Source: Agrococcus baldri | GTDB lineage: Bacteria; Actinomycetota; Actinomycetes; Actinomycetales; Microbacteriaceae | Assembly: GCA_007988785.1 (NCBI GenBank) | Contig: BJUU01000005.1 | Span: 1-64,000, forward strand | Length of the DNA stretch: 64,000 nt | Reading direction: 5' to 3' | In this document: piece by piece, positions 17,620 to 35,941 of the stretch | Layout: each line of letters starts with the position of its first letter | Numbering within the stretch: position 1 is the stretch's first letter | Translations under genes and position numbers: made by a program | The notes under the pieces: model-generated | The model's database searches: none | Told to the model about the DNA's origin: nothing | The model's input: only the letters and a program-made list of their open reading frames with translations

Positions 17620-17661
17620 CGCCCCACGACGCGGCACCGTGCCGCCGCAGGAGGTTTGACG

Positions 17662-19311: not shown

Positions 19312-22300
19312 TTGCTTCGGTGGATCAGGCGCCATCGCAGGTCGACGGTGGCGGGTGCGCTCGTCACCGCCGTCTCCGTCGCGCTCGGCATCCTCGCCTT
19401 CACGTACGACGGCTTCACCACGACCGACGTCGAGCTGAACGACGGCGGCGTCTGGGTGACGAAGCAGGAGAGCCAGCAGCTCGGCCGCATCAACATCCAG
19501 GCAGAGGAGCTCGACGCCGGGCTCACCTCGCCGACCGCGAGCTTCGACGTGCTGCAGGACGGCGACGACGTCCTGCTCCACAACCAGGAGGCATCCGCCG
19601 CCATCCTCGTCGACCCCGTGCAGGTGTCGCTCGGCTCGAGCGTGCAGCTGCCGCCGCAGGGCAGGATCGCCATGGGCGGCGGAGTCGTCGCGATCCTCGA
19701 CCCGGCCGACGGCATGCTGTGGGCGATGGGCTTCGGCGACTTCAGCGGCTTCTCGCCCGAGACCGAGGCGATCGCCGAGCTCGGTGAGGGCGCAGCCGTC
19801 GAGGTGGGCCGCGACGGCACCGTGCACGCCGTCTCGCCGCGCGACGGACAGCAGATCACCATCCCGCTGCTCGACGAGGGCGGCTTCGCCGAGCCCGTGG
19901 TGCGCGAGCGCGGCGAGCTGCGCGAGATGCAGGAGCCGCTCGTCACCGCCGTCGGCAGCGAGGCGGTCGTGCTCGACCGCGCGACGTCGACGCTGCTGCT
20001 GCCCGGCGGCGCCGTCGAGGTGCCGGGCGACGCCGCCGTGCAGCTGGTCGGCGACGCATCCGACCGGGTGGTGCTGACGACGCCGAACCAGCTCATCCAC
20101 CAGCCCATGGGCGGCGGGGCGGCCGAGGTCGAGCAGCGGCAGGGCGGCGGCGATGCCGTGCGCCCGGTGCAGCTGGGCGGCTGCGTCTACGCCGTCTGGA
20201 CGGGCAGCGCGCAGTTCGTGCGCGACTGCGAGGGGCAGGAGCGCAGCGAGCAGCAGGTGCCCGAGATGGACGGCAGCCCCGCGACCTTCCGCATCAACCG
20301 CGACGCGGTGGTGCTGAACCAGTACGCCGAGGGCTCGTCGTGGCTGCTCTCCGACACCCTCGTGCTGGTCGACAACTGGGACGACCTGCTGCCGGAGGAG
20401 TCGGAGGAGACGAGCGAGGAGGACGACTCCGAGTCGACCGAGGATCTGCTGACCAACCAGCCGCCGCCGCTGACCGACGAGAACACCGACCCGGATGCGA
20501 ACGACGACCGCTTCGGCGCGCGACCGGGCCGCTCGACCGTGCTCCCGGTGCTGTGGAACGACAGCGACGCCGACGGCGACGTGCTCACCGCCAGGGTCGT
20601 CGGCGACCTGCCGGAGGGGGTCGCCGTCTCGCCGGTCTCGAACGACTCCGAGCTGCAGCTGCAGCTGCCGGAGGGCTTCTCCGGCGGTTTCACCTTCAAC
20701 TACGAGATCGCCGACGGGCGCGGCGGCACCGACTCCGCGGGCGTGCGGGTGCAGGCGAGCAGCGACGGCGAGAACGGCGTGCCCGAGCAGCTGCGGGCGC
20801 AGGCCTTCGCGGTCGAGCAGGGCGGCGAGTACGAGTACCAGGTGCTCGCCGACTGGGTCGACCCCGACGGCGACGACATGTACCTCACGGGCGCGACGAC
20901 CGACTCCGGCGACACGATCCAGACCGACCCCTCCGGCCGGCTCATCTACACGGCGACCGGCGACGTGGGCGTGCAGACCCTCACCGTCACCGTCTCGGAC
21001 GGCCGCAGCGAGACGACCGGCGAGGTCGAGGTCGACGTGCGCGAGCGCGGCGACGCGCCGCCGCTCGCCAATGCCGACTTCGTCAGCACCATCGAGGGCC
21101 GCGAGGCGACCATCCGGCCGATGCTCAACGACTACTCGCCCTCCGGCCGGCCGCTGCGGCTCGCCTCGGTCGAGCCCGCGGAGGGCGTCGAGATGGTGTG
21201 GGACTCTGCGACCGGCACGGTGACCGTGCAGTCGGGCCCGGTCGGCACCCACTACCTGACCTACATGATCGCCGACGGCCCGCTGCCGAGCGTCGGCCGC
21301 ATCCGCATCGACATCCGCACGCCCGACGAGGAGGCCCGCCCGGTGGCGGTGCGCGACACGGCCCTGCTGCCGCAGCAGGGCTCGGCCCTGGTCGACCTGC
21401 TCGCCAACGACGTCGACCCCGCGGGCGGCGTGCTGGTCGTGCAGCAGTTCTCGATCGAGAGCGCCGCGCCCATCACGGTCGAGCTGCGCGACCGCCGCAT
21501 CGTCAGCATCCGCGACAACGGCCTCGACGCGCCCTTCCAGTTCACCTACACCGTCTCGAACGGCCGCTACTCCGAGACCGGCACCATCGAGGTCATCCCG
21601 GTCGCGCCGCCCGCGCAGCCGCGCGCGCCCAAGGCCGTCGACGACGTCGCGACGGTGCGCGCCGGCGACTACGCGACGATCGACGTGCTCGCCAACGACT
21701 TCTCGCCCGACGGCACGCCGTTCGAGATCGTCGACGAGGTGGTCGACACGAGCTTCGCCGACGCCTCGGAGGGCATCGCCTTCGTCGCCGAGGGCCAGCT
21801 GCGCGTGCACGCGCTCGTCGACGCCCCGACGCGCGCGACCGTCGCGTACGAGATCACCGATGAGCTCGGCAACCGCGACTCGGCGACCGTCGCCGTGACG
21901 ATCGTGCCGCGCGACGCCGAGCAGAACACCCCGCCGGCGCCCGAGACGGTCACCTCGCGCGTGCTCGCCGGCTCGACCGTGCGCATCCCCATCCCGCTCG
22001 ACGGCATCGACCCCGACGGCGACGGCGTCGAGCTCGTCGGCTACGACACGGGGCCCGAGGGCGGCCGCATCCTGCCGGAGGTCGGCCCCGACTACTTCGA
22101 CTTCCAGGCCTTCCCCGACAGCGCCGGCACCGTCGAGTTCACGTACCGCGTGCGCGACCGCTGGGGCGCCGAGGGCACCGCGACCGCGATCATCGGCATC
22201 GCGCAGGCCGCCGACGTCAACCAGACGCCGTTCGCCGAGGTCGACCTCGTCACCGTGCGGCCCGATCGCTCGGTGGCGATCGCGGTGCTCGAGAACGACT

Positions 22301-25300
22301 CCGATCCCGATCAGGACGCCCTGACGCTCAGGGCCGACGGGCTCGAGCTGCCCGCCGAGCTCGCCGACGCCGAGGTCAACGGCGAGCGCGGCACGGTCGA
22401 CCTGCGCTCGCCCGCCGAGCCCGGCGACTACCAGTTCACCTACACGGTGGCGGATGCGCGGGGCGCGTCGACGACGGGCTCGGTCGTCGTCACCGTGGCC
22501 GAGGATGCGCCGCTGCTGCCGCCGCTCGCTCGCGACGACCCCCTGCCCCGCGACGGCGTCGAGCTGGGCGTGCCGCTCGACGTGCCGGTGCTCGAGAACG
22601 ACCTCGACCCGGACGGCGACCCGAGCGAGCTCGAGCTCTCGATCGTGACCGGCCCCGGCACGGTCGCCGGCGACACGGTGCAGGTGGTGCCGAGCGAGGA
22701 GTTCCAGGTCGTCACCTACCGCGTGAGCGACATCGACGGGCTCACCTCCGAGGCCTTCGTCGCCGTGCCGCCGGTGCGCGACCGAGCGCCCTTCCTCTCG
22801 CGCACCGAGCCGGTCCAGATCCCCTCCGGCATCCTGCGCGAGCTGCCGCTGCGCGACTGGGTGACGACCTCCAACGGCAACCCGCCGCGCATCACCTCCG
22901 GCGACACCGTCACGGCCGTGAACGACGACGACACCGGCCTCATCGCCGACACCGAGACGCTGCAGTTCCGCTCGCCCCAGGGCTACGTCGGCCCGGCATC
23001 GATCACGTTCGAGGTCACCGACGGCAGCGGCCCCGAGGACGGCACGACCGCGATGCTGACGATCCCGATCGACGTCACGCCGTCGAGCGTCGTCGCCCCG
23101 GTGTTCGCCGGCGCGGTGCTGCGCCCGGTCGCGGGCGAGGGCGCGACGCAGTTCGACCTGCGCGACGCGACCACCGACCCCGACCCCGGCGACCTCGAGA
23201 GCATGAGCTATGAGCTCACGGGCGGATCCATGAGCGGCGTCGACGTGACGCTCGCCGACTCGATCGTCACTGCCACCGCCGAGGTGAACACGCCGCCGGG
23301 CGCGACGGGCTCCTTCCAGATCGTCGCGGTCGACAGGCACGGCAACCGCGCGCCCGGCACCGTGGTGGTCGAGGTGGTGCCCACGAACCGGCCGATGCCG
23401 ATCGCGCGCGACAACACCGGCGAGGCGATCCAGGGCGAGCCGTTCACGCTCGACGTGGTGGCCGACGACTTCAACCCCTTCGCGCGGGACGGCCTGCCCC
23501 TGCGCATGATCTCGGCTGAGGTGGTCTCCGGCCAGGGCGACATCGGCTTCACCGAGAGCGAGGTGACGGTCACCCCCGGCGCCGACTTCTCGGGCGTGCT
23601 CACGGTGCGCTACACGGTGCAGGACGCGACCGAGCTCGCGCAGCGGCAGGTCTCGGGCACCCTGACGCTCAACGTCAAGGGTGCGCCCGAGGCGCCGCCG
23701 CGCCCGAACGTCGACGCCGTCGGCGACTCGCAGGTGACGCTCACCTGGGCGCCCCCTGCCTCGAACGGCGCCCCGATCACCGGCTACGTCGTGCAGTCGG
23801 CCGACGGCTCGGTGTCGCAGGAGTGCGGCTCGACCACCTGCGTGATCGACGGGCTCACGAACAACGTCACCTACACGTTCCAGGTGGTGGCGCAGAACGA
23901 GGTCGGCGACTCCGACCCCTCTGCCGCCTCCCGCGAGGCCCGGCCCGACGTGCGGCCCGAGCAGCCCGCGCCGCCGCAGCGCCAGCGCGGCGACACGCAG
24001 GTGGCGCTGTCGTGGGAGGCGCCGGTCAACAACGGCTCGCCCATCCAGCACTACATCGTCGAGATCTCGCCGCCGGCACCGAACGGCGCCGTCTCGCAGG
24101 AGGTGCAGGGCCTCAATCACACCTGGACCGGCCTGACGAACGGCAAGTCGTACCAGTTCCGCGTGCAGGCGGTGAACCTGGCCGTCGAGCCGAGCGACTT
24201 CTCGGCCTACTCGCAGCCGGTCACGCCCGCCGGGCCGCCCATGCAGGTGGAGGGCGTGCGGGCGACGCCCGACCGCTCGATCCCCGGCGAGGTGCAGGTG
24301 CAGGTGGGCTGGACGGCGCCGAACGCGAACGGCGCGCCCATCGAGCAGTACACCGTCACGCCCTCGAACGGGGCGGAGCCCGCGGTGGTCACCGGCACGA
24401 GCGCCAACTTCCGCTTCCCCGCCGAGGGCGAGAACGTCACCTTCACCGTCACCGCCACGAACGACGCGGGCACGAGCACGCCGTCCGCGGCCTCGAGCCC
24501 GATCCGCACCTTCACCGCACCGGACGCGCCCCGCGGCGTCAGCGCATCCGACGGGAACACCGACTCGGTCGTCACCTGGACGCCGGGCAGCACCAACGGC
24601 CTGCGCGCGAACGAGGTGCGGTACGAGGTGCAGGGCGGCGGCGCCGGCACGCAGTCCTTCGGCCCCGGCGGCACCTACACCGGCATGGGCAACAACGGCG
24701 GGCCGTACACGATGCAGGTGCGCGCGGTCGCCGTCATCGACGGCACGACCTACGCGAGCGGCTGGACCAACGCCGGCAACCAGGCGAGGCCCTACGGCGC
24801 GATCGGCAGCCCGAGCGCGAGCGGCAGCGGCCAGGTCGAGCAGGTGACGTTCAACTGGTCGGCGCCGGGCCGCAACGGCCGCGACATCTCGACCAGGATC
24901 CGGATCGGCAACGGCAGCTGGCAGAACGTCGGCAACAGCGGCTCCCAGACGGCGAACGCGCGCGGCGGCGAGACCGTCCGCATCACGGTCGAGACCACGA
25001 CCGGCGCGAGCGAATCCGGGCACGGGGCGCAGACCACGACCGCGACGGCCGACGCGACGGCCGAGGAACGGCTGAACCCGAGCATCACGCTCAGCGGCGG
25101 CGGAGCGGCCTACCCGGGCGACTGCCAGGGCAACAACGGCGAGACCTGCCAGTGGTACCAGCTCAACTGGACCGACTTCGAGACCGGCGTCTACAGCTTC
25201 ACCTGCCACAACACGGGCTCCAGCAACGGCGCGGGCAACCCGTTCGAGAGCGGCAGGGTGAACATCACCAGCCGCAACGGCAGCACGATCGCCGAGTACC

Positions 25301-25413
25301 AGGGCGAGGCGGGCGACAACAACACCTGCTACTCCGGCTTCGCCGGACAGGCGTGGATGCACGTGACCGGCAACGGCATCGACCTCACCACGCCGAGAGT
25401 GAACTGGCCATGA
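19312..25413 (+). CDS. Giant surface protein with Ig/cadherin-like and FN3 repeats
   Basis: A 2,033-residue membrane-anchored extracellular protein. A single N-terminal anchor (about 13-31) follows a basic RRHRR. Residues 32-360 show repeating beta structure like a propeller (DGGVWVTKQE motifs), then an acidic linker (about 362-390). From there to about 1460 run some eleven Ig/cadherin-like modules of about 90 residues, many with a VLENDSDPDGD-type calcium loop. About five FN3-like modules follow (LTWAPPASNGAPITGYVV type). The last 110 residues contain four Cys and may form a disulfide-linked cap. The start is TTG eight bases after GGAAAGGGG. It leads a run of overlapping genes; the bifidobacterial counterpart is the FN3 protein of the PFNA locus. 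Confidence 0.85.
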   Translation: MLRWIRRHRRSTVAGALVTAVSVALGILAFTYDGFTTTDVELNDGGVWVTKQESQQLGRINIQAEELDAGLTSPTASFDVLQDGDDVLLHNQEASAAILVDPVQVSLGSSVQLPPQGRIAMGGGVVAILDPADGMLWAMGFGDFSGFSPETEAIAELGEGAAVEVGRDGTVHAVSPRDGQQITIPLLDEGGFAEPVVRERGELREMQEPLVTAVGSEAVVLDRATSTLLLPGGAVEVPGDAAVQLVGDASDRVVLTTPNQLIHQPMGGGAAEVEQRQGGGDAVRPVQLGGCVYAVWTGSAQFVRDCEGQERSEQQVPEMDGSPATFRINRDAVVLNQYAEGSSWLLSDTLVLVDNWDDLLPEESEETSEEDDSESTEDLLTNQPPPLTDENTDPDANDDRFGARPGRSTVLPVLWNDSDADGDVLTARVVGDLPEGVAVSPVSNDSELQLQLPEGFSGGFTFNYEIADGRGGTDSAGVRVQASSDGENGVPEQLRAQAFAVEQGGEYEYQVLADWVDPDGDDMYLTGATTDSGDTIQTDPSGRLIYTATGDVGVQTLTVTVSDGRSETTGEVEVDVRERGDAPPLANADFVSTIEGREATIRPMLNDYSPSGRPLRLASVEPAEGVEMVWDSATGTVTVQSGPVGTHYLTYMIADGPLPSVGRIRIDIRTPDEEARPVAVRDTALLPQQGSALVDLLANDVDPAGGVLVVQQFSIESAAPITVELRDRRIVSIRDNGLDAPFQFTYTVSNGRYSETGTIEVIPVAPPAQPRAPKAVDDVATVRAGDYATIDVLANDFSPDGTPFEIVDEVVDTSFADASEGIAFVAEGQLRVHALVDAPTRATVAYEITDELGNRDSATVAVTIVPRDAEQNTPPAPETVTSRVLAGSTVRIPIPLDGIDPDGDGVELVGYDTGPEGGRILPEVGPDYFDFQAFPDSAGTVEFTYRVRDRWGAEGTATAIIGIAQAADVNQTPFAEVDLVTVRPDRSVAIAVLENDSDPDQDALTLRADGLELPAELADAEVNGERGTVDLRSPAEPGDYQFTYTVADARGASTTGSVVVTVAEDAPLLPPLARDDPLPRDGVELGVPLDVPVLENDLDPDGDPSELELSIVTGPGTVAGDTVQVVPSEEFQVVTYRVSDIDGLTSEAFVAVPPVRDRAPFLSRTEPVQIPSGILRELPLRDWVTTSNGNPPRITSGDTVTAVNDDDTGLIADTETLQFRSPQGYVGPASITFEVTDGSGPEDGTTAMLTIPIDVTPSSVVAPVFAGAVLRPVAGEGATQFDLRDATTDPDPGDLESMSYELTGGSMSGVDVTLADSIVTATAEVNTPPGATGSFQIVAVDRHGNRAPGTVVVEVVPTNRPMPIARDNTGEAIQGEPFTLDVVADDFNPFARDGLPLRMISAEVVSGQGDIGFTESEVTVTPGADFSGVLTVRYTVQDATELAQRQVSGTLTLNVKGAPEAPPRPNVDAVGDSQVTLTWAPPASNGAPITGYVVQSADGSVSQECGSTTCVIDGLTNNVTYTFQVVAQNEVGDSDPSAASREARPDVRPEQPAPPQRQRGDTQVALSWEAPVNNGSPIQHYIVEISPPAPNGAVSQEVQGLNHTWTGLTNGKSYQFRVQAVNLAVEPSDFSAYSQPVTPAGPPMQVEGVRATPDRSIPGEVQVQVGWTAPNANGAPIEQYTVTPSNGAEPAVVTGTSANFRFPAEGENVTFTVTATNDAGTSTPSAASSPIRTFTAPDAPRGVSASDGNTDSVVTWTPGSTNGLRANEVRYEVQGGGAGTQSFGPGGTYTGMGNNGGPYTMQVRAVAVIDGTTYASGWTNAGNQARPYGAIGSPSASGSGQVEQVTFNWSAPGRNGRDISTRIRIGNGSWQNVGNSGSQTANARGGETVRITVETTTGASESGHGAQTTTATADATAEERLNPSITLSGGGAAYPGDCQGNNGETCQWYQLNWTDFETGVYSFTCHNTGSSNGAGNPFESGRVNITSRNGSTIAEYQGEAGDNNTCYSGFAGQAWMHVTGNGIDLTTPRVNWP

Positions 25414-26411
25414 CGACGATAGGGAACACCATGAACGCATCGATGACCCGTGAGCAGGCGACCTGGTTCGCCGAGACGTTCACCCGACTCGTCGACAACG
25501 TCGGCACCGTCGTGCTCGGCAAGGAGGATGTCATCCGGCTCGCGTTCACCGCGATGCTCGCCGAGGGCCACCTGCTGCTCGAGGACGCACCCGGCACCGG
25601 CAAGACGCAGCTCGCGAAGTCGATGGCCGCCACGGTGCAGGGCACGAACCACCGCATCCAGTTCACGCCCGACCTGCTGCCCTCCGACGTCACCGGCGTC
25701 ACGGTCTACGACCAGAAGACCGGCGAGTTCGAGTTCCACAAGGGCCCGATCTTCGCCTCCATCGTGCTCGCCGACGAGATCAACCGCGCGAGCCCCAAGA
25801 CGCAGTCGGCGCTGCTCGAGGTGATGGAGGAGGGCCGCGTGACCGTCGACGGCACGCCCTACGAGGTCGGCCGCCCCTTCATGGTGATCGCGACCCAGAA
25901 CCCCATCGAGCAGGCCGGCACGTACCGCCTGCCGGAGGCACAGCTCGACCGCTTCCTGATGAAGACCTCGATCGGCTACCCGGGCCGCGAGCAGACCGTG
26001 CGCATCCTGGCGGGCGCCTCGGTGCGCAACGCCTCCGCGGGCGTGCAGCCGGTGATCACCACGAGCGCGATCGCCGAGATGATCGACCTCGCCGCCACCG
26101 TGCACGTCGACGATGCGGTGCTCGACTACGTCGCGCAGCTCTCGGAGCACACCCGCGAGTCGAAGGACACCCGCCTGGGCGTCTCGGTGCGCGGCGCGAT
26201 GTCGCTCATGCGCGCCGTCAAAGTGTGGGCCGCCGCGAAGGGCCGCGCCTTCGTGCTGCCCGACGACATCAAGCAGCTCGCCCAGTCGGTCTGGGCGCAC
26301 CGCATCGTCATCGACCCCGAGGCCGAGTTCTCGGGCGTCACGGGCGACCGCATCATCGACCGCGCCATCGCCGATGTCGCCGCCCCGCAAGACCGGCAGA
26401 ACGCTGCATGA
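25410..26411 (+). CDS. MoxR-family AAA+ ATPase
   Basis: A 333-residue AAA+ ATPase of the MoxR group, which act as chaperones that assemble or activate partner proteins, typically with a DUF58 protein. Walker A is DAPGTGKTQ (Lys65) and Walker B is LADEINRASPKTQ (Asp122-Glu123). Sensor 1 is ATQNPIEQAGTYRLPEAQLDRF, and the C-terminal lid is normal. The ATG overlaps the stop of the giant surface gene (ATGA); an in-frame ATG at 25431 has a better Shine-Dalgarno (AGGGA) and would remove seven residues. It overlaps the DUF58 gene by four bases. A cytosolic partner for the neighbouring membrane proteins is the natural reading. Confidence 0.95.
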   Translation: MTTIGNTMNASMTREQATWFAETFTRLVDNVGTVVLGKEDVIRLAFTAMLAEGHLLLEDAPGTGKTQLAKSMAATVQGTNHRIQFTPDLLPSDVTGVTVYDQKTGEFEFHKGPIFASIVLADEINRASPKTQSALLEVMEEGRVTVDGTPYEVGRPFMVIATQNPIEQAGTYRLPEAQLDRFLMKTSIGYPGREQTVRILAGASVRNASAGVQPVITTSAIAEMIDLAATVHVDDAVLDYVAQLSEHTRESKDTRLGVSVRGAMSLMRAVKVWAAAKGRAFVLPDDIKQLAQSVWAHRIVIDPEAEFSGVTGDRIIDRAIADVAAPQDRQNAA

Positions 26412-27802: not shown

Positions 27803-30102
27803 GCGAGACGCCCATGCTGCCGCGCACGCCCCGCCAGGCCGCCATCGACTGCGCGGCCGTCCTCCTCGTGGGGCTGGCCGCGACGCTCTCGTTCGGCCCC
27901 GTCTTCGGCGGAGTGGCCTACCTGATCGCGGGCCTCGGCGGCACGCTGCTCGGCATCGCCATCGGCGTGCTCACCTCGCTGCGCCCGCTGCGCGGCTGGC
28001 TCATGACGGCCGCGGGCGTCGTGCTCGCGCTCGTGCTGTTCGGGCCGGCGCTCGCGGTGCCGCGCAAGACCATCGGCGGCGTGCTGCCGACCCTCGACGC
28101 GTGGCAGGAGCTGCTGCTCGGCGTCGTCTTCTCGTGGAAGGGCCTGCTGACGGCAGAGCCGCCCGCCGAGGGCTTCCCGAGCCTGCTCGTCGTGCCGTTC
28201 CTGACGCTGCTGGTCACCTCGACGATCGCGACCGTGCTGGCGATGCGACTGCGCCGCGGCGCCCCCTTCGCGATGCTCCCCGGCATCGTGGCGCTCGTCG
28301 TCGGCATCACCTTCGGCACCAAGATCGCCTTCCTGCCCGCCGTGCTCGGCATCGCCGTCGCCGGCGTCGTGATCGCCTGGTGGGCGTGGCGCAGGGCGCA
28401 GTGGCGCACGGGCCTGAACGAAGAGGTCGAGGTCACGAACGACACGCGCTTCCGCGGCAGGGCGCGGCGGCAGCGCACCCGCGGGGCGGTCGCGATGATC
28501 GCCGGCGCGCTCGTCGTCGCCGGGCTCGTCAGCATCCCCGTGCAGCCGGCCGGCCGCGCGGTGCTGCGCGACACCGTCGAGCCGCCCATCGAGCTCGCCG
28601 AGTACCCCAGCCCGCTCGCGGGCTTCCGCGACTGGCACAAGAACTTCGAGGACGCCACGCTGATGACCGTCAGCGGCATGCCGGAGGGATCCCGGCTGCG
28701 GCTCGCGACCTTCGACTACTACGACGGCACCGTCTACGCCGTCGCGGGCGCGCAGCAGTCCGGCTCCGGCTCCTTCGCCCGCATCGGCGACGAGGTGCTC
28801 GTGCAGCAGTCGGGCGAGCCCGCGAACGTGCGGGTCGACGTGCAGGACTACGCGGGCATCTGGGTGCCGGAGGTCGGCTACATCCAGTCGCTCGACTTCG
28901 GCGGGGAGCGCGAGGACGCGCTGCAGAGCTCGCTGCACTACAACGGCCAGACCGGCACCGCCATCGCGCTCGAGGGCCTCGGCGCCGGCGACTCGTACGA
29001 GATCGAGGCGATCGTGCCCTCGCAGCCCGAGCACGAGGAGCTCGAGGGCGCGACCGTCACCGACGTGCCGGTGCCCGACCCGGCGATCGTGCCCGACCTG
29101 CTGCAGGCCTGGGTGGCCACCTGGGGCAACGAGGGCCAGAACCAGCTCGAGAACATCCAGAACATGCAGCGGCTGATGCAGAACGGCAGCTTCAGCCACG
29201 GCCTCGAGGACGACACCATCCCCTCGCTCGCCGGGCACGGCGCCTCGCGCATCCAGTCGATGTTCGAGCGCGACGTGCTGGTCGGCGACGACGAGCAGTA
29301 CGCCACCGCCTTCGCGCTGGCGCTGAACCGCATCAACGTGCCGGCGCGGGTCGTCATGGGGCTCTACCCCGACGACGGCTTCCCGGGCGGCGACGAGCCG
29401 GTCGAGCTCACGGGCGGCGAGATGCACGCCTGGGTCGAGGTGCCCTTCGAGGGCCACGGCTGGGTGCGGTTCGACCCGACCCCGCCGGAGGACAACGACG
29501 ACATCCAGCCCGAGCCGGAGCCCGAGCCCGACCCCAAGCCGCAGGTGCTGCAGCCCCCGCAGCCGCCGGAGGAGCCCGCCGACATGTCGCCGGACACCGT
29601 CGCCGACGAGGGTCAGGAGGAGGACGAGGAGATCGAGGATCGCTCCTGGGTCATCTGGCTGTGGATCGGCGGCGGCTCGCTGCTGCTCATCCTGCTGCTC
29701 GCCTCGCCGTTCATCGTGGTCGGCGCGATCAAGGCGGCCAGGTGGCGCAGGCGCTACCGCGCGCAGCGCGAGAGCGACCGCCTCTCCGGCGGCTGGCACG
29801 AGGTGGTCGACCACGCCGTCGACCTCGGCCTGGCCGTGCCGGCCGGCGTCACCCGCCGCGAAGTCGCCTCCACCGTCGAGGATCGATACCCTCGATCGAG
29901 AGCGACCGAGATCGGCGAGTTCGTCGATGAGGGCGTCTTCGGCCCGGGCGAGCCCGCCAAGGAGGATGTCGACGCGTTCTGGCTCAATGTCGAGCAGAGC
30001 GTGAAGGGCATGCGAACGGAGGCGAGGCCGATGCGGCGACTGCTGGGCGTGCTGTCGCTGCGGTCGTTCCGACGACGCAGGAGAGAGCGGAGGCGCCGAT
30101 GA
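27799..30102 (+). CDS. TgpA-type membrane transglutaminase homologue lacking the catalytic Cys
   Basis: A 767-residue membrane protein. About six N-terminal helices (about 12-235) precede an extracytoplasmic transglutaminase-like domain (about 420-565) and a further helix (about 616-643) with a charged cytosolic tail. In active relatives the nucleophile sits in a G-D-C-E-Q-Y-A motif; here the codon at 29290-29292 gives Asp498 (GDDEQYATAF). His543 (EMHAWVEV) and Asp559 (RFDPTPPE) of the triad remain. It is therefore probably a binding module rather than a crosslinking enzyme. An acidic Pro-rich stretch links the domain to the last helix. It overlaps the DUF58 and RDD genes by four bases. Confidence 0.9.
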   Translation: MSETPMLPRTPRQAAIDCAAVLLVGLAATLSFGPVFGGVAYLIAGLGGTLLGIAIGVLTSLRPLRGWLMTAAGVVLALVLFGPALAVPRKTIGGVLPTLDAWQELLLGVVFSWKGLLTAEPPAEGFPSLLVVPFLTLLVTSTIATVLAMRLRRGAPFAMLPGIVALVVGITFGTKIAFLPAVLGIAVAGVVIAWWAWRRAQWRTGLNEEVEVTNDTRFRGRARRQRTRGAVAMIAGALVVAGLVSIPVQPAGRAVLRDTVEPPIELAEYPSPLAGFRDWHKNFEDATLMTVSGMPEGSRLRLATFDYYDGTVYAVAGAQQSGSGSFARIGDEVLVQQSGEPANVRVDVQDYAGIWVPEVGYIQSLDFGGEREDALQSSLHYNGQTGTAIALEGLGAGDSYEIEAIVPSQPEHEELEGATVTDVPVPDPAIVPDLLQAWVATWGNEGQNQLENIQNMQRLMQNGSFSHGLEDDTIPSLAGHGASRIQSMFERDVLVGDDEQYATAFALALNRINVPARVVMGLYPDDGFPGGDEPVELTGGEMHAWVEVPFEGHGWVRFDPTPPEDNDDIQPEPEPEPDPKPQVLQPPQPPEEPADMSPDTVADEGQEEDEEIEDRSWVIWLWIGGGSLLLILLLASPFIVVGAIKAARWRRRYRAQRESDRLSGGWHEVVDHAVDLGLAVPAGVTRREVASTVEDRYPRSRATEIGEFVDEGVFGPGEPAKEDVDAFWLNVEQSVKGMRTEARPMRRLLGVLSLRSFRRRRRERRRR

Positions 30103-31430
30103 GCTGGGAGCTCCCCGGGCAGCACGGCGCCGCCCCCGTGCGCGACGAGACGGGCAGGCCCGACGCCGCGTACGCCGCGGCGCTCGGCCTGCTGCCCGCG
30201 CCGCTCGGGCGCCGCGCCCTCGCATCCGCCATCGAGCTCGCGGCCTTCGCCGTGCTGCAGCTGCCGTACTGGATCCCGGCCGCGCCCGTGCTGCAGGCGG
30301 GCCTCGCCGGCGGCCCGCAGGCGATGGCGGCCGACCCGGGCTTCGGGTGGATGCTGGCCGGAGCCGGCCTCGCCGGCGCCCTCAGCCTCGCGTTCGCGAT
30401 CGTGCAGATCGTGCTGCACGGCCGCCAGGGCGTCACGCTCGGCAAGGCCGTCACGGGCATCCGCTCGGTCAACGTCGCGACCCTCGGCCGGCCCGGCATC
30501 GGCAGGGCGCTCGCCCGCGCCGTCGTGCTGTGGCTCAGCTTCCTGGTGCCCGTCGTGGGCCCGATCCTCGTGCTGGTCTCGCCCGTGTTCGACAGCCGTC
30601 GCCGCGGCCGCGGCTGGCTCGACCAGGTCGGCGCGACCTGGTTCGTCGACGTCGCGAACGGCCTCGACCCGTACCACGAGAAGCGGATGCTGAGCGCGCG
30701 GAAGGCGGTCGACGCGGCCTCCGCGCCGGCCGGCTCGGCAGCGCCGCGGCACGACGAGCCGCTCGGGCGCCCCGCGCAGCGCTACCGCCCCGGTGAGCTC
30801 AGCGGCCAGGCGCGCCCTGCAGCGCCGCAGACCGCGTGGGCGAAGGCCGCGGAGCGGCCGGGCCTGGCGATCAGCGGCGGCATCGTCGACAGCGTGCCGG
30901 GCCGCGCGCATCCGCCCTCGCCACGCTCCTCGCCGGCGCCGCGGCCGGCGAGCGCGCCGAGCGAGATCAGCGACGAGACCGTCGTCGAGCCCGACGTCGA
31001 CGGCGAGATCGACGAGAGCACCGTGCGCCGCATCGAGGTGCACGTCGCCGACGAGCCGGAGCTCGACGTGACCCGCGCCAGGCCGCGCGGGAAGCCGGTG
31101 CTCGCGACGCTCGGCTTCGACACCGGCGACCGCTTCGACATCACGGGCGCGGCCCTCATCGGCCGCAACCCCTCGCCGAGCCAGGGGGAGGTGGTCGAGC
31201 ACCTGCTGCCGATCGCCGACGACACCCGCTCGATCTCGAAGACGCACCTGCTCATCACGGCGGCTCCGCTCGCCGCCGTCGACCGCGCCTCGACGAACGG
31301 CTCGAGCGTCGTGCGCGCCGGCACCGAGCATCCGCTCGCGCCCGGCGAGCCCTTCGCGCTCGTGCCCGGCGACGTCGTGCGCTTCGGCGACCGCTCGGTG
31401 ACGGTCGAGTCGGCAGGGGGTCGATCGTGA
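30099..31430 (+). CDS. RDD-family membrane protein with C-terminal FHA domain
   Basis: A 443-residue protein. Residues 36-185 form an RDD domain of about three membrane helices (GRQGVTLGKAVTGIR is typical). A long disordered linker (190-330) follows, then an FHA domain (about 333-440) with IGRN (354-357), SISKTHLLI and STNGS (398-402), the features needed to bind phosphothreonine. The linker holds SGGIVDSVPG (259-268), nearly repeated in the FHA protein two genes on, and two acidic Thr sites, SDETVV (291-296) and DESTVRRI (305-312), that look like kinase targets or FHA docking sites. It probably tethers a phospho-reader to the membrane beside the kinase. Confidence 0.88.
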   Translation: MSWELPGQHGAAPVRDETGRPDAAYAAALGLLPAPLGRRALASAIELAAFAVLQLPYWIPAAPVLQAGLAGGPQAMAADPGFGWMLAGAGLAGALSLAFAIVQIVLHGRQGVTLGKAVTGIRSVNVATLGRPGIGRALARAVVLWLSFLVPVVGPILVLVSPVFDSRRRGRGWLDQVGATWFVDVANGLDPYHEKRMLSARKAVDAASAPAGSAAPRHDEPLGRPAQRYRPGELSGQARPAAPQTAWAKAAERPGLAISGGIVDSVPGRAHPPSPRSSPAPRPASAPSEISDETVVEPDVDGEIDESTVRRIEVHVADEPELDVTRARPRGKPVLATLGFDTGDRFDITGAALIGRNPSPSQGEVVEHLLPIADDTRSISKTHLLITAAPLAAVDRASTNGSSVVRAGTEHPLAPGEPFALVPGDVVRFGDRSVTVESAGGRS

Positions 31431-32254
31431 GCACCGTCGGCGAGTTCCGCTTCAGCCACCCCTCGATCTCGCTGCGCTGGGCGGGCGCGACGCACCCCGG
31501 CATGCGCCGCAGCGTCAACGAGGATTCCGTCTTCGCCTCCTTCCCGGTCTTCGTGGTCGCCGACGGCATGGGCGGGCACGCCTCGGGCGACGTCGCGAGC
31601 GCGCTCGCGATCGAGGCCTTCCGCAGCCTCAAGGGCCGCACCCTCGCCGACGTCGAGTGCGTCGAGCACGCCGTCGAGCGGGCCTTCGACTCGGTGCACG
31701 AGCGCTCGCTCGGCGAGCCGATCGGCGGCACGACGCTCTCCGGCACCGTGCTGGTCGACGTCGACGGCGTCGCCCACTGGCTCATCCTCAACATCGGCGA
31801 CTCCCGCACCTACCTGCTCGAGCACGGCCGCCTGCAGCAGGTGACCGTCGACCACTCGGTCGTGCAGGAGCTCGTCGAGACCGGCGCGCTCCAGCGGGCC
31901 GAGGCGCGCCGCCACCCGCACCGCAACGTCATCACCCGCGCCTTGGGCGCCGGCGAGCGGCAGCCGGCCGACGTGTGGCTGCGCCCGGCCGAGCGCGGCC
32001 AGCGGCTGCTCGTGTGCTCCGACGGGCTGACGGGCGAGCTCGAGGACGACGAGATCGGCCAGGTGCTGCGCGAGGTCGAATCGCCCGCGGCGGCGGCCGC
32101 GCTGCTCATGCGCCGCGCGCTCGACGCCGGGGCGCGCGACAACGTCTCGATCGTCGTGGTCGACGTCGACGCCGTGGCGCTCGCCGACGACGACCTGTTC
32201 GACACCCACGCGCAGTCGCTCGACGACACCGTCCCGAGGGGGGAGCTGCCATGA
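31427..32254 (+). CDS. PP2C-family Ser/Thr protein phosphatase
   Basis: A 275-residue soluble phosphatase of the PPM/PP2C family, the likely antagonist of the kinase encoded 1.5 kb downstream. Metal-binding motifs are intact: NED (Asp33), VVADGMGGHASGD (Asp46), NIGDSR, SDGLT (Asp199) and DN (Asp238). There is no membrane segment, unlike PstP of mycobacteria, so it must reach membrane substrates from the cytosol. The GTG start at 31427 overlaps the RDD-FHA stop (GTGA) and follows GGCAGGGGG. A tail of some 20 acidic residues includes LDDTVPRGEL, possibly a phosphosite. Confidence 0.95.
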   Translation: MSTVGEFRFSHPSISLRWAGATHPGMRRSVNEDSVFASFPVFVVADGMGGHASGDVASALAIEAFRSLKGRTLADVECVEHAVERAFDSVHERSLGEPIGGTTLSGTVLVDVDGVAHWLILNIGDSRTYLLEHGRLQQVTVDHSVVQELVETGALQRAEARRHPHRNVITRALGAGERQPADVWLRPAERGQRLLVCSDGLTGELEDDEIGQVLREVESPAAAAALLMRRALDAGARDNVSIVVVDVDAVALADDDLFDTHAQSLDDTVPRGELP

Positions 32255-33732
32255 ACGCACGCATCGAGTACGTCCCCGGCGAGGCCTGGTGCGTCGCCGC
32301 CGGCCGCGTCGTGCTGGTGTGCGAGCGCGACCTGTCGGCCCCGCGCGCCGCCGCGCTGCACGCCGAGGCCGCGGCCGTCGACTCGCTCGAGACGCTGCGC
32401 GCGCTCGCCGAGTCGGAGCCCACGGCGCTGCTCGCCCTCGTCGACCTCGACGGGCGGCGCGCGCTGCTGCGCCGCCACGGGGTGCCCGCCGCGGCGCAGG
32501 AGTCGGCCCTGCCCGACCGCTACGGCGAGGCCTGGTCGCTCGACGAGCTCGACGCCGCCCAGCCGATCGCGGCCGGCGGGCTCGGCGCGCTCGACGGCCC
32601 CGCGCTGCCGCTCGAGGCCGGCGTCGTGCGCGTGGCGGCGGTCCGCATCGCACCGCGGCGGGCGGATGCGACGGCGCACGACGCCGTCGACGCCCCAGGC
32701 GCCGAGGCGGTCGCCACGGAGCCGCGCGCCGGCGCGTTCGGCCAGACGGTGCCGCCGCGCGAGGCGGCCGAGGCACGTGCCGCCGCCGGTCCCGCGCCGG
32801 CCCCCGGGCCGACCCCCGGGCCGGCTGCGGAGCCGGCCGCCGACGCGCCGCTCGTCGATGAGCCAGCGGCTCCGGCTCCGGCAGCGGCTCCGGCGACGGC
32901 CGAGCCGGAGGCCGCGCCCGCGAGCCCGCGCGACGAGTCGCCGGTGCCGAGCGACACCGGCAACCCGATCGGCGGCCTGATCGACTCGGTGCCCGGCTTC
33001 ATCGAGCCGGCCTTCGACGTGCGCACGGCGCCGCCCGCCGCCCCGGCGCCGTCCGCGACGCCCGCATCGGCGCCGCCCGCGTCGGCCCCGCCCGCGCCGG
33101 CCCCGCCCGCATCCGGCTCGGCCGCATCCGCCCCGCCCGCATCCGCCGAGCTCGGCGACCACGACGGCATGACCGTCACCGCCGACCAGGCGCGCGAGCT
33201 GCTCGCGGCATCCGGGCACGCCGGCGCGCAGCCCGCCGGCACCGCTGCCGCCGAGGGGCCGCCGGCCACCGGGCCGCTCGTGCTCTCGACCATCTGCCCC
33301 GCGGGGCACGTGAACGCGCCCGGCAGCCAGCGCTGCACGCACTGCGGTGCGGTCGTCGACGAGAGCAGCGCCGCGCAGCGCCGCCGGCCGGAGGTCGCGG
33401 TCGTCGTGCTCCCCACCGGCGAGCGCGTGCCGCTCGGCCGCGGCGTCGTGATCGGCCGCCGGCCGCGCTCGCGGCGGGTCGAGGACGGCCGCGTGCCGCG
33501 CCTCGTGACCGTCGAGAGCCCGAGCGAGGACATCTCGCGCAGCCACCTCGAGCTGCGCGTCGAGGACTGGAACCTCGTGGCGATCGACCTGAGCTCGACC
33601 AACGGCACGCTGCTGCTGCAGGAGGGCGCCGTCCCGCAGCGGCTGCGGCCTGAGGCCTCGACCATCCTGCAGCTCGGCGACCGGCTCGACCTGGGCGACG
33701 GGGTCGTCGTCGCGATCGAGCCCGCGCCGTGA
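32251..33732 (+). CDS. Zinc-ribbon and FHA-domain protein
   Basis: A 493-residue cytosolic protein. The first 130 residues form a folded domain I cannot name. Residues 135-345 are a Pro/Ala-rich linker containing IGGLIDSVPG (240-249), nearly identical to a motif in the RDD-FHA protein. A short zinc ribbon (CPAGH at 349-353, CTHC at 362-365) precedes an FHA domain (385-493) with IGRRPRS, SEDISRSHLE and SSTNGT (448-453), all canonical for phosphothreonine binding. It overlaps the phosphatase and kinase genes by four bases. Probable role: a phosphorylation-dependent adaptor within the cluster. Confidence 0.85.
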   Translation: MNARIEYVPGEAWCVAAGRVVLVCERDLSAPRAAALHAEAAAVDSLETLRALAESEPTALLALVDLDGRRALLRRHGVPAAAQESALPDRYGEAWSLDELDAAQPIAAGGLGALDGPALPLEAGVVRVAAVRIAPRRADATAHDAVDAPGAEAVATEPRAGAFGQTVPPREAAEARAAAGPAPAPGPTPGPAAEPAADAPLVDEPAAPAPAAAPATAEPEAAPASPRDESPVPSDTGNPIGGLIDSVPGFIEPAFDVRTAPPAAPAPSATPASAPPASAPPAPAPPASGSAASAPPASAELGDHDGMTVTADQARELLAASGHAGAQPAGTAAAEGPPATGPLVLSTICPAGHVNAPGSQRCTHCGAVVDESSAAQRRRPEVAVVVLPTGERVPLGRGVVIGRRPRSRRVEDGRVPRLVTVESPSEDISRSHLELRVEDWNLVAIDLSSTNGTLLLQEGAVPQRLRPEASTILQLGDRLDLGDGVVVAIEPAP

Positions 33733-35177
33733 GTCCGAAGCGGGCGCCCTCGGCGCCGCCGGAGCTGCCCGGCTACGACTACGTGTCGCTGCTGGGATCC
33801 GGCGGCTTCGCCGACGTGTTCCTCTACCGGCAGCTGCTGCCCTCCCGCACGGTGGCCGTGAAGGTGCTGCTGCCCGATGCCGTGAACCGGCAGCTGATCG
33901 AGAACTTCCGCCACGAGGCCAACGTGATGGCCCAGCTCTCGAGCCATCCGGCGATCGTGACGATCTACGGCGCCGCCATCGCGCCGGACGGCCGGCCCTT
34001 CCTGGCCATGGAGTACTGCCCGCGGCCCAACCTCGGCGTGCGCTACCGCCGCGACCGCTTCTCGGTGCCCGAGGTGCTCACGCTCGGCGTGCAGATCGCC
34101 GGCGCCGTCGAGACCGCGCACCGCGCCGGCATCCTGCACCGCGACATCAAGCCCGCCAACATCCTCGTCACCGCCTACAACCGGCCCGCGCTCACCGACT
34201 TCGGCATCGCGACGAGCTCCGGCGTCGGCGACGACGCGAGCGGCATGTCCATCCCCTGGTCGCCGCCCGAGGCCTTCCTCGAGCCGCCCAGGTCGACCCC
34301 CGCATCCGACGTCTTCTCGCTCGCGGCGACGCTGTCGACCCTGCTGGCCGGCCGCTCGCCGTTCGAGCTGCCGGGCGGCAGCAACACGAGCGTCGACCTG
34401 ATCGACCGCATCCAGCGGGGCGAGATCTCGCCCATGGCGCGCCACGACGTGCCGCCGCGGCTCGAGGCGGTGCTGCAGTCGGCGATGGATCCGGATCCCT
34501 CGCGCCGGCAGTCGACGGCACTGGCCTTCGGGCGTGCGCTGCAGCAGGTCGAGGCCGAGATGGCGCTGCCGGTGACGCCGCTCGACGTGCTCGACGACTC
34601 GCTCGCGGCCGAGGCGATCGACGAGGAGGACGGCGGTGCCACGCGCATCCGCGGGGTCGTCTCGATCGACCCGCACGCGCCGCAGGCGCCCGCCGCGGGC
34701 GACGACTCGACCATCCGCAGGGCGCCGGCGGCCATGGGCGCTGCACGCGAGCCCGCCGCGCCGCGCTCGCGCCGCGGCACCGTCTTCGCCGTCGTCGGCG
34801 CCGCGTGCGTCGCCGCTCTCGGCATCGGCATCGTCGCGCTCGCGCTGACGACCAACGACGAGCCGCCCCCGCAGGCCGCCCCGAGCCGGTCGATCGCCCC
34901 GCCGCCCGCCGCGCAGCAGCCCTCCGCCCCGATCAACGTCGACGGCGTCGTCGACGGCGACACGGTGCGCTTCACCTGGACGAACGCGCAGCCCCAGGAG
35001 GGCGACGCCTTCCAGTACCGCTACGAGCCCAGCGACGGCGATCCGGTGACCGCGCAGACCGCCGCGCCCGAGCTGGTGGTCGAGCGCGACAGCGACGGCG
35101 AGACGTGCATCCTGGTGCGACTGGTGCGATCGGACGGGCGATCGTCGAACGACACGGAGGGATGCGTCGATGGCTGA
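33729..35177 (+). CDS. Transmembrane Ser/Thr protein kinase (PknB-like)
   Basis: A 482-residue Hanks-type kinase. The glycine loop LGSGGFADVF (22-31), Lys45 in VAVKV, Glu63, the catalytic loop HRDIKPANI (Asp139) and DFG (157-159) are all present, so it should be active. A juxtamembrane region (285-345) contains DGGATRIRG and DDSTIRRA, candidate autophosphorylation sites. One membrane helix (351-374) leads to an extracellular Pro-rich stalk and a C-terminal FN3-like domain with two Cys, not PASTA repeats as in PknB. The external domain may sense the surface protein. The GTG start overlaps the upstream gene (GTGA); bifidobacterial pkb2 is the closest named analogue. Confidence 0.93.
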   Translation: MSPKRAPSAPPELPGYDYVSLLGSGGFADVFLYRQLLPSRTVAVKVLLPDAVNRQLIENFRHEANVMAQLSSHPAIVTIYGAAIAPDGRPFLAMEYCPRPNLGVRYRRDRFSVPEVLTLGVQIAGAVETAHRAGILHRDIKPANILVTAYNRPALTDFGIATSSGVGDDASGMSIPWSPPEAFLEPPRSTPASDVFSLAATLSTLLAGRSPFELPGGSNTSVDLIDRIQRGEISPMARHDVPPRLEAVLQSAMDPDPSRRQSTALAFGRALQQVEAEMALPVTPLDVLDDSLAAEAIDEEDGGATRIRGVVSIDPHAPQAPAAGDDSTIRRAPAAMGAAREPAAPRSRRGTVFAVVGAACVAALGIGIVALALTTNDEPPPQAAPSRSIAPPPAAQQPSAPINVDGVVDGDTVRFTWTNAQPQEGDAFQYRYEPSDGDPVTAQTAAPELVVERDSDGETCILVRLVRSDGRSSNDTEGCVDG

Positions 35178-35901
35178 GCAGGTGCCGGAGCTGAAGGTGG
35201 AGTTCGCGGGGGAGTGGATCACGCTCGACCCGAGCAGGCCGTACATCATCGGTCGCGAGGGCGACCTGACGGTCGACGACAACCAGTACCTGCACCGGCA
35301 GTTCCTGGAGATCCGCAACCAGGACGGGCTGTGGTGGCTCTCGAACCTCGGCACCCGGCTCTCGGCGACCATCTCCTCCGGCGGCGGGGCGGTGCAGTCG
35401 TGGCTCTCGCCGGGCGCGCGCCTGCCGATCGTCTTCTCCGAGTGCTCGATCGTGTTCACGGCCGGGCCGACGACCTACGAGATCGGCCTGCACTCCGACG
35501 ACGCCTCCTTCACGATGTCGACCGAGCACCGGCGCCGCTCCTCCGGCGAGACGACGGTGATGCCGGTCGGCCTGACCGAGCTGCAGAAGCTGCTGATCGT
35601 GGCGCTGGCGGAGCCGATGCTGCGCCGCGACGGCGTGGGGGTGAGCGAGCTGCCCTCGAGCGCCGCCGCCGCCGAGCGGCTCGGCTGGACGATGAGCCGC
35701 TTCAACCGCAAGCTCGACAACGTCTGCGACAAGCTCGATCGGATGGGCGTGCAGGGGCTGCGCGGCGGGGTCGGCAAGCTCGCGAGCAACCGGCGCGCGC
35801 GCCTGGTCGAGTACGCCGTCTCCTCGCAGCTCGTGACGCGCTCGGATCTGGGGCTGCTCGACGACGACCGCCTGCGCGCCGCCGACGACTCCCAGGACTG
35901 A
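35170..35901 (+). CDS. Degenerate FHA-domain protein with winged-helix-like C terminus
   Basis: A 243-residue cytosolic protein. Residues 15-105 resemble an FHA domain: [11 protein letters not shown] (25-35) and LHRQFLEI (41-48) align with the IGR and SRxHxxI motifs, but the conserved Asn of the STNGT loop is missing (NLGTRLSAT), so phosphate reading is uncertain. Residues 133-225 ([17 protein letters not shown], then [19 protein letters not shown]) look like a winged helix-turn-helix. A Thr site GETTV (126-130) lies between. It overlaps the kinase gene by eight bases and is the last cluster gene. It may carry the kinase signal to transcription, or use the helical domain for protein contacts. 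Confidence 0.75.
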
Positions 35902-35912
35902 TCCCGCGCCGC

Positions 35913-35941
35913 TTGACCAGGTTTCGCCGCACCGGTAACAT
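35913..35941 (+). promoter_or_regulatory. str operon promoter (TTGACC-17-TAACAT)
   Basis: TTGACC (35913-35918) and TAACAT (35936-35941) are 17 bases apart, a near-consensus primary-sigma promoter. It begins 12 bases after the cluster's last gene and leaves a leader of about 200 bases before rpsL. Apart from this promoter, no clear structure was found in 35902-36149. Confidence 0.75.

What the first reader, a model, noticed from the sequence alone, without database searches (positions are those of the whole stretch)
19312..35901. Coupled nine-gene surface-repeat / MoxR-DUF58-transglutaminase / FHA-PP2C-kinase system
Seen: nine genes over 16.6 kb, each overlapping the next by four to eight bases, encode a giant surface protein, MoxR ATPase, DUF58, a TgpA-like protein, RDD-FHA, PP2C, zinc-ribbon FHA, a transmembrane kinase with an FN3-like outer domain, and FHA plus winged helix. 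Known: MoxR, DUF58 and transglutaminase genes often cluster, and a kinase/FN3/AAA/DUF58/Tgm/PrpC set (PFNA locus) was described in Bifidobacterium. Inference: a phosphorylation-controlled machine in which the kinase senses the surface, MoxR with DUF58 remodels the membrane complex, and three FHA proteins read the marks. The three FHA readers go beyond the bifidobacterial set as I remember it.
Basis: partly seen in the sequence, partly recalled or inferred. Interest (0 to 1): 0.8.

Follow-up and report, generated by a model that had tools for sequence, protein, structure and literature searches.

The report
Orphaned front half of secretion operon
Nine tightly packed genes appear to build a phosphorylation-controlled cell-surface machine; in close relatives the same operon runs on into the motor and small cargo-like genes of a type VII protein secretion system, which are missing at this place here, and it is the relative of an operon published as unique to gut bifidobacteria.

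Summary
The nine genes are real (19312-35901). The genus is Agrococcus by contig match. Three results change the reading. (1) The operon is orthologous to Bifidobacterium PFNA, published as unique to bifidobacteria: MoxR, DUF58 and TgpA-like proteins of both form one clade (SH-aLRT 100) apart from three generic clusters. Eight core genes share one strand in 26 of 40 hand-picked genomes of 8 families. (2) In relatives the operon runs into a type VII secretion ATPase (FHA + FtsK/SpoIIIE) and WXG100 genes: next to the ninth gene in 21 of 22 Agrococcus relatives, within the fetched stretch in 23 of 40 genomes. The window lacks it: its ninth gene abuts rpsL, and the 248-bp gap matches the sequence before rpsL in 6 of 6 ATPase-carrying relatives. 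Eight genes stay about as constrained as in relatives; RDD-FHA looks looser. (3) The 'transglutaminase' is a conserved pseudoenzyme: no catalytic Cys in 73 of 73 operon copies, while 11 of 11 generic relatives keep Cys and His. Likely function: kinase/phosphatase/FHA-controlled assembly of an envelope-spanning fibre complex, coupled to type VII secretion in relatives. No biochemistry was done.

The parts
19312..25413 (+). G1: giant surface protein, 2033 aa, TTG start; N-terminal anchor helix, beta-propeller, Ig/cadherin-like repeats, FN3 domains; relative of bifidobacterial FN3
   Evidence: N-terminal homology to Bifidobacterium copies
19336..19404 (+). N-terminal membrane-anchor helix of G1
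   Evidence: helix 10-32 of the model; hydrophobic segment 10-35
19450..20370 (+). membrane-proximal beta-propeller of G1
   Evidence: AlphaFold2 pLDDT 88.9; Foldseek YVTN propeller 1l0q E 5.5e-10, BamB chains
25431..26411 (+). G2: MoxR AAA+ ATPase (in-frame alternative start 25410)
   Evidence: Pfam AAA_3 E 1.9e-62; start choice from relatives; Walker A/B present
26408..27802 (+). G3: DUF58 protein with an N-terminal hydrophobic stretch
27799..30102 (+). G4: TgpA-like polytopic protein with a transglutaminase-like domain that lacks the catalytic Cys
   Evidence: Pfam TgpA_N, Transglut_core; missing Cys; hydrophobic segments
29290..29292 (+). codon 498 of G4 (Asp) where active transglutaminases have the catalytic Cys
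30099..31430 (+). G5: RDD membrane domain + FHA with canonical pThr-site residues
   Evidence: RDD; FHA motif
31020..31022 (+). Thr308 of G5 in a DESTVRR motif, candidate phosphosite (inference)
31427..32254 (+). G6: PP2C phosphatase, catalytic motifs present
32251..33732 (+). G7: zinc-ribbon + FHA protein, canonical pThr-site residues
33729..35177 (+). G8: Ser/Thr kinase with K, HRD, DFG present, one TM segment, FN3-like outer domain
34914..35174 (+). FN3-like outer domain of the kinase
   Evidence: profile hits fibronectin/myomesin/titin chains, best E 3.1e-5
35170..35901 (+). G9: FHA (divergent site) + helical, winged-helix-like domain; the diagnostic protein of the 9-gene form
35554..35556 (+). 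Thr129 of G9, invariant in 33 of 33 rows, in the low-confidence linker; candidate kinase site (inference)
35902..36149 (+). gap between G9 and rpsL; in relatives a block of about 9-13 kb with the T7SS ATPase lies here
   Evidence: promoter-like site 35913-35941 (1 found, mean 0.2 in shuffles)
36150..36524 (+). rpsL, first gene of the ribosomal str operon that follows

Best explanation
The locus is the conserved front of an actinobacterial envelope operon, orthologous to the Bifidobacterium PFNA operon, that in many Micrococcales-type genomes also holds a type VII secretion ATPase and WXG100 genes. Working model: G1 is anchored in the membrane by its N-terminus, stacks a beta-propeller on the membrane and sends an Ig/FN3 fibre through the wall, as proposed for TsdI and EsaA of other type VII systems. 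The TgpA-like pseudoenzyme and RDD-FHA are its membrane scaffold; MoxR with DUF58 assembles or remodels it. The transmembrane kinase senses the envelope through its FN3-like outer domain and phosphorylates threonines (candidates: G9 Thr129, RDD-FHA Thr308, kinase Thr328); FHA domains of RDD-FHA, the zinc-ribbon protein and, in relatives, the secretion ATPase read them, PP2C erases them, and G9 links the state to a helical, possibly DNA-binding output. In this Agrococcus the secretion block is missing at the locus and the nine genes persist, so the module does something without it or serves another ATPase in trans. Shown by sequence: gene content, orthology, linkage to the ATPase, missing block, missing catalytic Cys, predicted folds. 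Inferred: every interaction, phosphorylation and secretion step.
For: Eight core genes on one strand in 26 of 40 genomes, two rotated gene orders, overlapping junctions in relatives. Bifidobacterium copies in the published order with kinase, G1, MoxR, DUF58, Tgp and often PP2C and FHA; one clade, SH-aLRT 100. ATPase next to G9 in 21 of 22 Agrococcus relatives, within the stretch in 23 of 40 genomes; ATPase = FHA + FtsK_SpoIIIE and WXG100 neighbours by Pfam. Canonical pThr-site residues in RDD-FHA, zinc-FHA and in all 14 aligned ATPases. Pseudo-transglutaminase 73 of 73. Missing block. dN/dS close to that of relatives for 8 of 9 genes. Propeller. Published for B. longum: Pkb2 phosphorylates MoxR and the operon is co-transcribed (PMC8430577, passages).
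Against: The ATPase was not found in the stretch of 17 of 40 genomes (in two, G104 and G061, only about 2.4 kb downstream was fetched), and only 7 of 62 Bifidobacterium genomes have an EssC-profile hit above 290 bits, so secretion is not a universal part. In B. colobi a separate T7SSd-like cluster lies about 25 kb from PFNA. Fourteen of 40 genomes with G9 lack part of the set in the stretch. Linkage is not proof of a joint complex. The helical domain of G9 has no fold match of its own. RDD-FHA has higher dN/dS in window pairs (mean 0.52 against 0.36), and kinase (0.26 against 0.22) and G9 (0.14 against 0.11) are slightly higher. No expression or protein data for Agrococcus.
Confidence: 0.55

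Rival explanations
1. A stand-alone envelope assembly/adhesion machine (fibre G1 built by MoxR/DUF58/pseudo-TgpA under kinase control); the type VII ATPase next door is a co-regulated neighbour that shares the FHA signalling, not a partner.
For: Nine genes intact and constrained without the ATPase in the window and kept in G019, which also lacks it next to G9; 7 of 62 Bifidobacterium genomes have an EssC-profile hit above 290 bits; rotated operons in families f14 and genus g18 without it in the stretch.
Against: Adjacency in 21 of 22 Agrococcus relatives and in several other families, in both gene orders; conserved pThr-site residues in the ATPase FHA; in G118 kinase and RDD-FHA directly precede the ATPase (the contig starts there, so genes further upstream are unknown).
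Confidence: 0.33
2. A host-recognition operon that binds cytokines, as published for Bifidobacterium PFNA.
For: Published TNF-alpha binding of FN3 fragments and TNF-induced expression in B. longum (PMC8430577, PMC10688814, PMC12607495: passages seen).
Against: Orthologous operons occur in Microbacterium, Agreia, Herbiconiux, Paenarthrobacter, Cellulomonas, Georgenia and others, most of them known to me as environmental genera (recalled); an ancestral role in cytokine binding is implausible, though later co-option in the gut is possible.
Confidence: 0.05
3. An ordinary MoxR-DUF58-TgpA cluster with an active transglutaminase that cross-links the surface protein.
For: Domain hits TgpA_N and Transglut_core; a generic relative with Cys occurs in the same genome (L252).
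Against: Cys missing in 73 of 73 operon copies and His kept in only 17 of them; Cys and His kept in 11 of 11 generic relatives found by profile; separate clade.
Confidence: 0.03

Closest known systems
PFNA operon of Bifidobacterium (pkb2, fn3, aaa-atp, duf58, tgm, +/- prpC, hypothetical, fha)
   Same: Orthologous MoxR, DUF58, pseudo-Tgp, homologous G1 N-terminus, kinase, PP2C and an FHA gene.
   Different: Window order is rotated; it adds RDD-FHA, zinc-ribbon FHA and G9; relatives add a T7SS ATPase and WXG100 genes; not restricted to bifidobacteria. A review already notes that the mycobacterial moxR operon resembles PFNA (PMC12067865, passages).
T7SSd (Garrett et al. 2024, PMC11217815): TsdA, TsdC, TsdD, TsdH, TsdI
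   Same: Membrane kinase, giant Ig-rich envelope protein, and in relatives an FHA-bearing FtsK/SpoIIIE ATPase and WXG100 protein.
   Different: G1 has an N-terminal anchor and propeller and no hydrophobic segment at the C-terminus; no TsdH-like gene among the nine; adds MoxR, DUF58, pseudo-TgpA, PP2C, extra FHA proteins. The main text has 0 occurrences of MoxR, DUF58 or transglutaminase. B. colobi carries a T7SSd-like cluster besides PFNA.
MRP-type MoxR-DUF58-transglutaminase clusters
   Same: Same three-gene core and order.
   Different: Generic ones keep Cys and His. One of them, L133, has no kinase, FHA or G1 match in its 20-kb stretch; L134 has MoxR and DUF58 and one RDD/FHA-profile hit.
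pknA/pknB-fhaA/fhaB-pstP operon of actinobacteria (recalled, no call)
   Same: Kinase, phosphatase and FHA genes in one operon.
   Different: Cell-division/cell-wall genes there; MoxR/DUF58/TgpA-like/G1 here.

Membership tests
PFNA operon | pkb2, fn3, aaa-atp, duf58, tgm together, one direction | tested here: met
   all five present on one strand, order rotated
PFNA operon | proteins orthologous to the Bifidobacterium ones | tested here: met
   MoxR+DUF58+Tgp tree of 56 rows: Bifidobacterium and other copies in one clade, SH-aLRT 100, apart from 3 generic clusters; G1 N-terminus 23-25% identical with a shared L[NDH][DN]G[GTSA][VI]W[VL] motif
PFNA operon | restricted to Bifidobacterium (as published) | tested here: not met
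   28 of 80 named loci kept are outside Bifidobacteriaceae, 26 of them with two or more operon genes by profile; this is a published claim about range, not a structural feature
PFNA operon | co-transcription; kinase phosphorylates MoxR | not testable with these tools
   published for B. longum only (passages)
Type VII secretion system (any) | EccC/EssC-type ATPase in the locus | tested here: not met
   absent from the window (phmmer E 1e-8); present in relatives
Type VII secretion system (any) | WXG100 protein in the locus | tested here: not met
   own genome has one WXG100 match, on contig C4; of 5 relatives searched, 4 (G002, G004, G011, G012) have one within 1 kb of the ATPase next to G9, and G019 has them beside a different ATPase
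T7SSd | membrane Ser/Thr kinase TsdD | tested here: inconclusive
   membrane kinase present with active-site residues; orthology to TsdD not tested
T7SSd | TsdI with Sec signal and C-terminal TM helix | tested here: not met
   G1 has one hydrophobic segment, 10-35, none at the C-terminus (simple hydropathy)
T7SSd | TsdH single-TM small protein | tested here: not met
   no such gene among the nine
active transglutaminase (TgpA) | catalytic Cys and His | tested here: not met
   Cys absent in 73 of 73 operon copies; window keeps His543 but not Cys

The most novel reading that the evidence does not exclude
An undescribed, MoxR/DUF58/pseudo-transglutaminase-bearing type of actinobacterial type VII secretion system, controlled by threonine phosphorylation, of which the Bifidobacterium PFNA operon and this Agrococcus locus are forms without a linked motor; the giant propeller-Ig-FN3 protein is its envelope conduit or receptor.
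Probability: 0.42. Interest if true: 0.82.

Novelty: new variant of a known kind. Interest (0 to 1): 0.64.

Why it matters
It ties two separate literatures: bifidobacterial PFNA, studied as a host-immunity operon, and type VII secretion, whose recent catalogue of variants (PMC11217815) has no occurrence of MoxR, DUF58 or transglutaminase in its main text. If right, the PFNA 'transglutaminase' should be tested as a scaffold instead of an enzyme, its function sought in envelope assembly or secretion, and a natural set of genomes with and without the linked motor is available to test what the module does alone.

Tried and rejected
Host recognition as the ancestral role: rejected on taxonomic range. 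Active transglutaminase: rejected. Membership in T7SSd: rejected on G1 topology and missing TsdH. Ubiquitin-like N-terminus of the ATPase: a profile search gave only E 0.079 to a redesigned ubiquitin; left as a lead. Direct profile comparison of the kinase outer domain with the G1 FN3 repeats was weak. Solved structures for G9 by sequence: two hits at E 0.41 and 0.99, taken as chance. A short FtsK-like ORF common in Bifidobacterium (about 650 aa) was read in two genomes and its neighbours did not look like type VII genes to me; not pursued. A Pfam line to a toxin mid-region for 1 of 18 kinase outer domains (E 0.039) was taken as chance. The first dN/dS script mixed non-coding extensions into the pairs of relatives; replaced. 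The regex was mis-set and found nothing; repeated. That pattern asks for Cys or for the operon motif, so I checked afterwards with a profile: it finds a relative in 11 of 14 control stretches (not in L134, L253, L256), and those 11 are the ones with Cys.
Full report
OBSERVATION. Nine consecutive + strand genes at 19312-35901 were confirmed by ORF listing, translation and family searches. Of eight junctions, six overlap by 4 bp and the last by 8 bp. The MoxR start is probably 25431, because 5 of 8 same-genus relatives keep a pair of starts 12 bp apart shortly after G1, so the G1/MoxR junction is more likely a 17-bp gap. Active-site motifs of kinase, PP2C and MoxR are present; RDD-FHA and the zinc-ribbon FHA protein have the usual phosphothreonine-site residues, while G9 keeps the GR and His but lacks the Ser and has N-x-G for N-G (the canonical motifs are recalled). 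No terminator-like site lies within the operon and a promoter-like site lies before rpsL.

WHERE IT COMES FROM. The window is contig C5 of a 3.16-Mb genome. A same-genus genome, G013, has a contig of 272,467 bases carrying this operon, and a named record of the same length with the operon is Agrococcus casei (L197), so the genus is Agrococcus. Equal contig lengths also identify G044 as Bifidobacterium scaligerum, G505 as B. olomucense and G616 as B. colobi.

DISTRIBUTION. G9, the most diagnostic protein, was found by profile in 173 of 396 genomes of the order at E up to 0.001 (at least 11 of these are weak, in families f4, f16 and one genome of f18) and in 31 of 196 of the class, 16 of them strong (E below 1e-60, the window's own genome included), 5 of those outside the order. 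I chose 40 genomes by hand for diversity, out of 66 others with a strong or contig-edge G9 match, and fetched 20 to 36 kb around G9. In 26 of 40, G1, MoxR, DUF58, TgpA-like, PP2C, zinc-FHA, kinase and G9 lie on one strand, in 8 families and 16 genera by code. Of the 14 others, two (G035, G097) lack only G1, and there the stretch ended before the place where it is expected; G013 lacks only a PP2C match and G110 only the zinc-FHA match; the remaining ten lack four or more of the set. Two main gene orders occur, the window's and a rotated one (PP2C, zinc-FHA, kinase, G9, G1, MoxR, DUF58, TgpA-like). Four-base overlaps recur.

RELATION TO PFNA. By record title 51 are Bifidobacterium and one more is of its family; the other 28 include Microbacterium (8), Herbiconiux, Cellulomonas, Agrococcus, Agreia, Agromyces, Paenarthrobacter, Tersicoccus, Cellulosimicrobium, Flavimobilis, Actinotalea, Georgenia, Occultella and Propionibacteriaceae genomes. 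Gene profiles on these loci show kinase, G1, MoxR, DUF58, TgpA-like and often PP2C and an FHA gene in the Bifidobacterium loci, as published for PFNA; in many the FHA gene is on the other strand (papers: passages). A quick maximum-likelihood tree of MoxR+DUF58+TgpA-like (56 rows) puts Bifidobacterium, the other operons and a second copy in the window's own genome in one clade of 53 with SH-aLRT 100 on a long branch, apart from three generic clusters; the Bifidobacteriaceae copies form their own clade inside it. Long branches are flagged for the second copy and one generic row, so the place of the second copy is unsure. The statements that the cluster is 'unique to bifidobacteria' (PMC8430577, passage) and that FN3 'is found only in Bifidobacterium' (PMC10688814, passage) do not hold for the orthologous operon. 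A review had noted that the mycobacterial moxR operon resembles PFNA (PMC12067865, passages).

PSEUDO-TRANSGLUTAMINASE. Where active transglutaminases have Cys in G-x-C (recalled), the operon protein has G-[DN]-[SDEAG]-E-Q-[YF]-A. The pattern used contains this motif, so I counted only copies found by other means: the 30 of 40 G9-selected genomes that have the gene in the stretch, 7 DUF58-selected copies, 38 of the 47 Bifidobacterium genomes with a strong profile match (3 of them the same as DUF58-selected ones; 9 not read), and the window: Cys absent in 73 of 73. The active-site His is kept in 17 of 73. Among 14 control stretches a profile finds a generic relative in 11, and all 11 have G-Y-C and H-A-W: 7 Bifidobacterium paralogues, one in the window's own genome, and G025, G033 and G303; L134, L253 and L256 gave none. 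The PFNA papers call the protein a transglutaminase or presumed cysteine protease; word searches for 'triad' and 'cysteine' in two of them (main text) showed no remark on missing residues.

TYPE VII LINK. In two family members (G090, G118) the gene after RDD-FHA encodes a 1505-1558 aa protein with FHA and FtsK_SpoIIIE domains, followed by WXG100 genes. The same protein lies next to G9 in 21 of 22 same-genus relatives that have G9, with 11-45 bases between the matches (exception G019; G010, 65% complete, has no G9). Outside the genus, 7 of the 16 sampled genomes have G9; the ATPase is adjacent in G029, G032 and G035, after the TgpA-like gene in G031, and not linked in G024, G026 and G037. In the 40 fetched genomes it lies in the stretch in 23; in two of the other 17 (G104, G061) only about 2.4 kb downstream was fetched. 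Among the 80 named loci 8 show it, limited by locus ends; none of the Bifidobacterium loci does. Its FHA domain keeps the GR, S-x-x-H and N-G residues in all 14 rows. In relatives G004, G012 and G002 the order is G9, ATPase, WXG100 and other small genes, then rpsG-fusA-tuf with rpsL before them. In 62 Bifidobacterium genomes only 7 have an EssC-profile hit above 290 bits.

THE WINDOW LACKS THE MOTOR. Here G9 is followed 248 bp later by rpsL. That gap aligns with the sequence just upstream of rpsL in 6 of 6 ATPase-carrying relatives, over 200-240 bp. Since G9-ATPase adjacency is shared with other families, loss in this lineage is the simpler reading. No close ATPase copy was found elsewhere in the genome (best E 7e-68 against 0 in most relatives); a more distant one on contig C28 and a short one beside the second copy on C16 exist. 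G019, distant within the genus, lacks the neighbour too. Mean dN/dS, window pairs against pairs of relatives that keep the ATPase (G004, G011, G006, G002): G1 0.34/0.34, MoxR 0.09/0.07, DUF58 0.20/0.21, TgpA-like 0.22/0.20, RDD-FHA 0.52/0.36, PP2C 0.20/0.18, zinc-FHA 0.32/0.31, kinase 0.26/0.22, G9 0.14/0.11 (four and six pairs that are not independent, no test of significance).

STRUCTURES. G9: FHA plus a helical domain, pLDDT 88; the linker between them is variable except for an invariant Thr129 (33 of 33 rows) at low pLDDT, a candidate phosphosite by inference. G1 residues about 47-353: beta-propeller behind an N-terminal helix, pLDDT 88.9; among the best Foldseek matches are a YVTN propeller of an archaeal surface protein (first) and BamB.

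KNOWN SYSTEMS. Garrett, Higginson and Palmer 2024 (PMC11217815; abstract, sections 7 and 9 and passages seen) describe T7SSd with a kinase, a giant Ig-rich protein, an FHA-bearing ATPase, WXG100 and TsdH. The parallel is close, but G1 topology and gene set differ, and B. colobi carries what looks like a T7SSd cluster (kinase-like ORF, small TM protein, 1786-aa protein, 1567-aa ATPase with a profile hit) about 25 kb from its PFNA TgpA-like gene (the kinase by eye). Ten paper searches of the open library listed no paper that I could see joining PFNA or MoxR-DUF58 to type VII secretion; these are listings, some capped (20 of 14,489; 10 of 24; 12 of 34), and subscription papers are not held.

VERDICT. 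What it does remains untested.

Noticed in passing
G000 contig C16, locus L132 (about 34.8-50.8 kb): The same genome has a second, divergent copy on one strand: PP2C, kinase, G1-like, MoxR, DUF58, TgpA-like (also without Cys), then a short FtsK/SpoIIIE ATPase ORF of about 916 aa; ATPase ORFs of similar match and size occur in other Agrococcus genomes.
   Followed up: partly
L066 and L065 (genomes G090, G118): RDD-FHA (and in G118 the kinase) directly precedes the type VII ATPase and WXG100 genes, with no MoxR/DUF58/TgpA-like match in the stretch; in G118 the contig starts there. The signalling genes may be portable.
   Followed up: partly
L306 in Bifidobacterium colobi (G616): A T7SSd-like cluster about 25 kb from the PFNA operon: two architecturally parallel kinase-plus-giant-protein systems in one genome.
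   Followed up: no
L280, G000 contig C28: A further, distant type VII-like ATPase ORF (about 1,460 codons, 405 bits to the profile) with an FHA-profile hit nearby in the same genome.
   Followed up: no
genome G019, L295: This Agrococcus relative lacks the ATPase next to G9 but has a different one (33% identical) with WXG100 genes, about 10 kb upstream of the operon.
   Followed up: partly
class-level hits (families f34, f35 and others): Weak G9-like proteins (E 2e-20 to 2e-4) occur in large-genome actinobacteria; neighbourhoods not read.
   Followed up: no
window 17656-19197: ORF just upstream of the operon with a long acidic, Thr-rich N-terminal part and what look like C-terminal membrane segments, no Pfam hit.
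   Followed up: no
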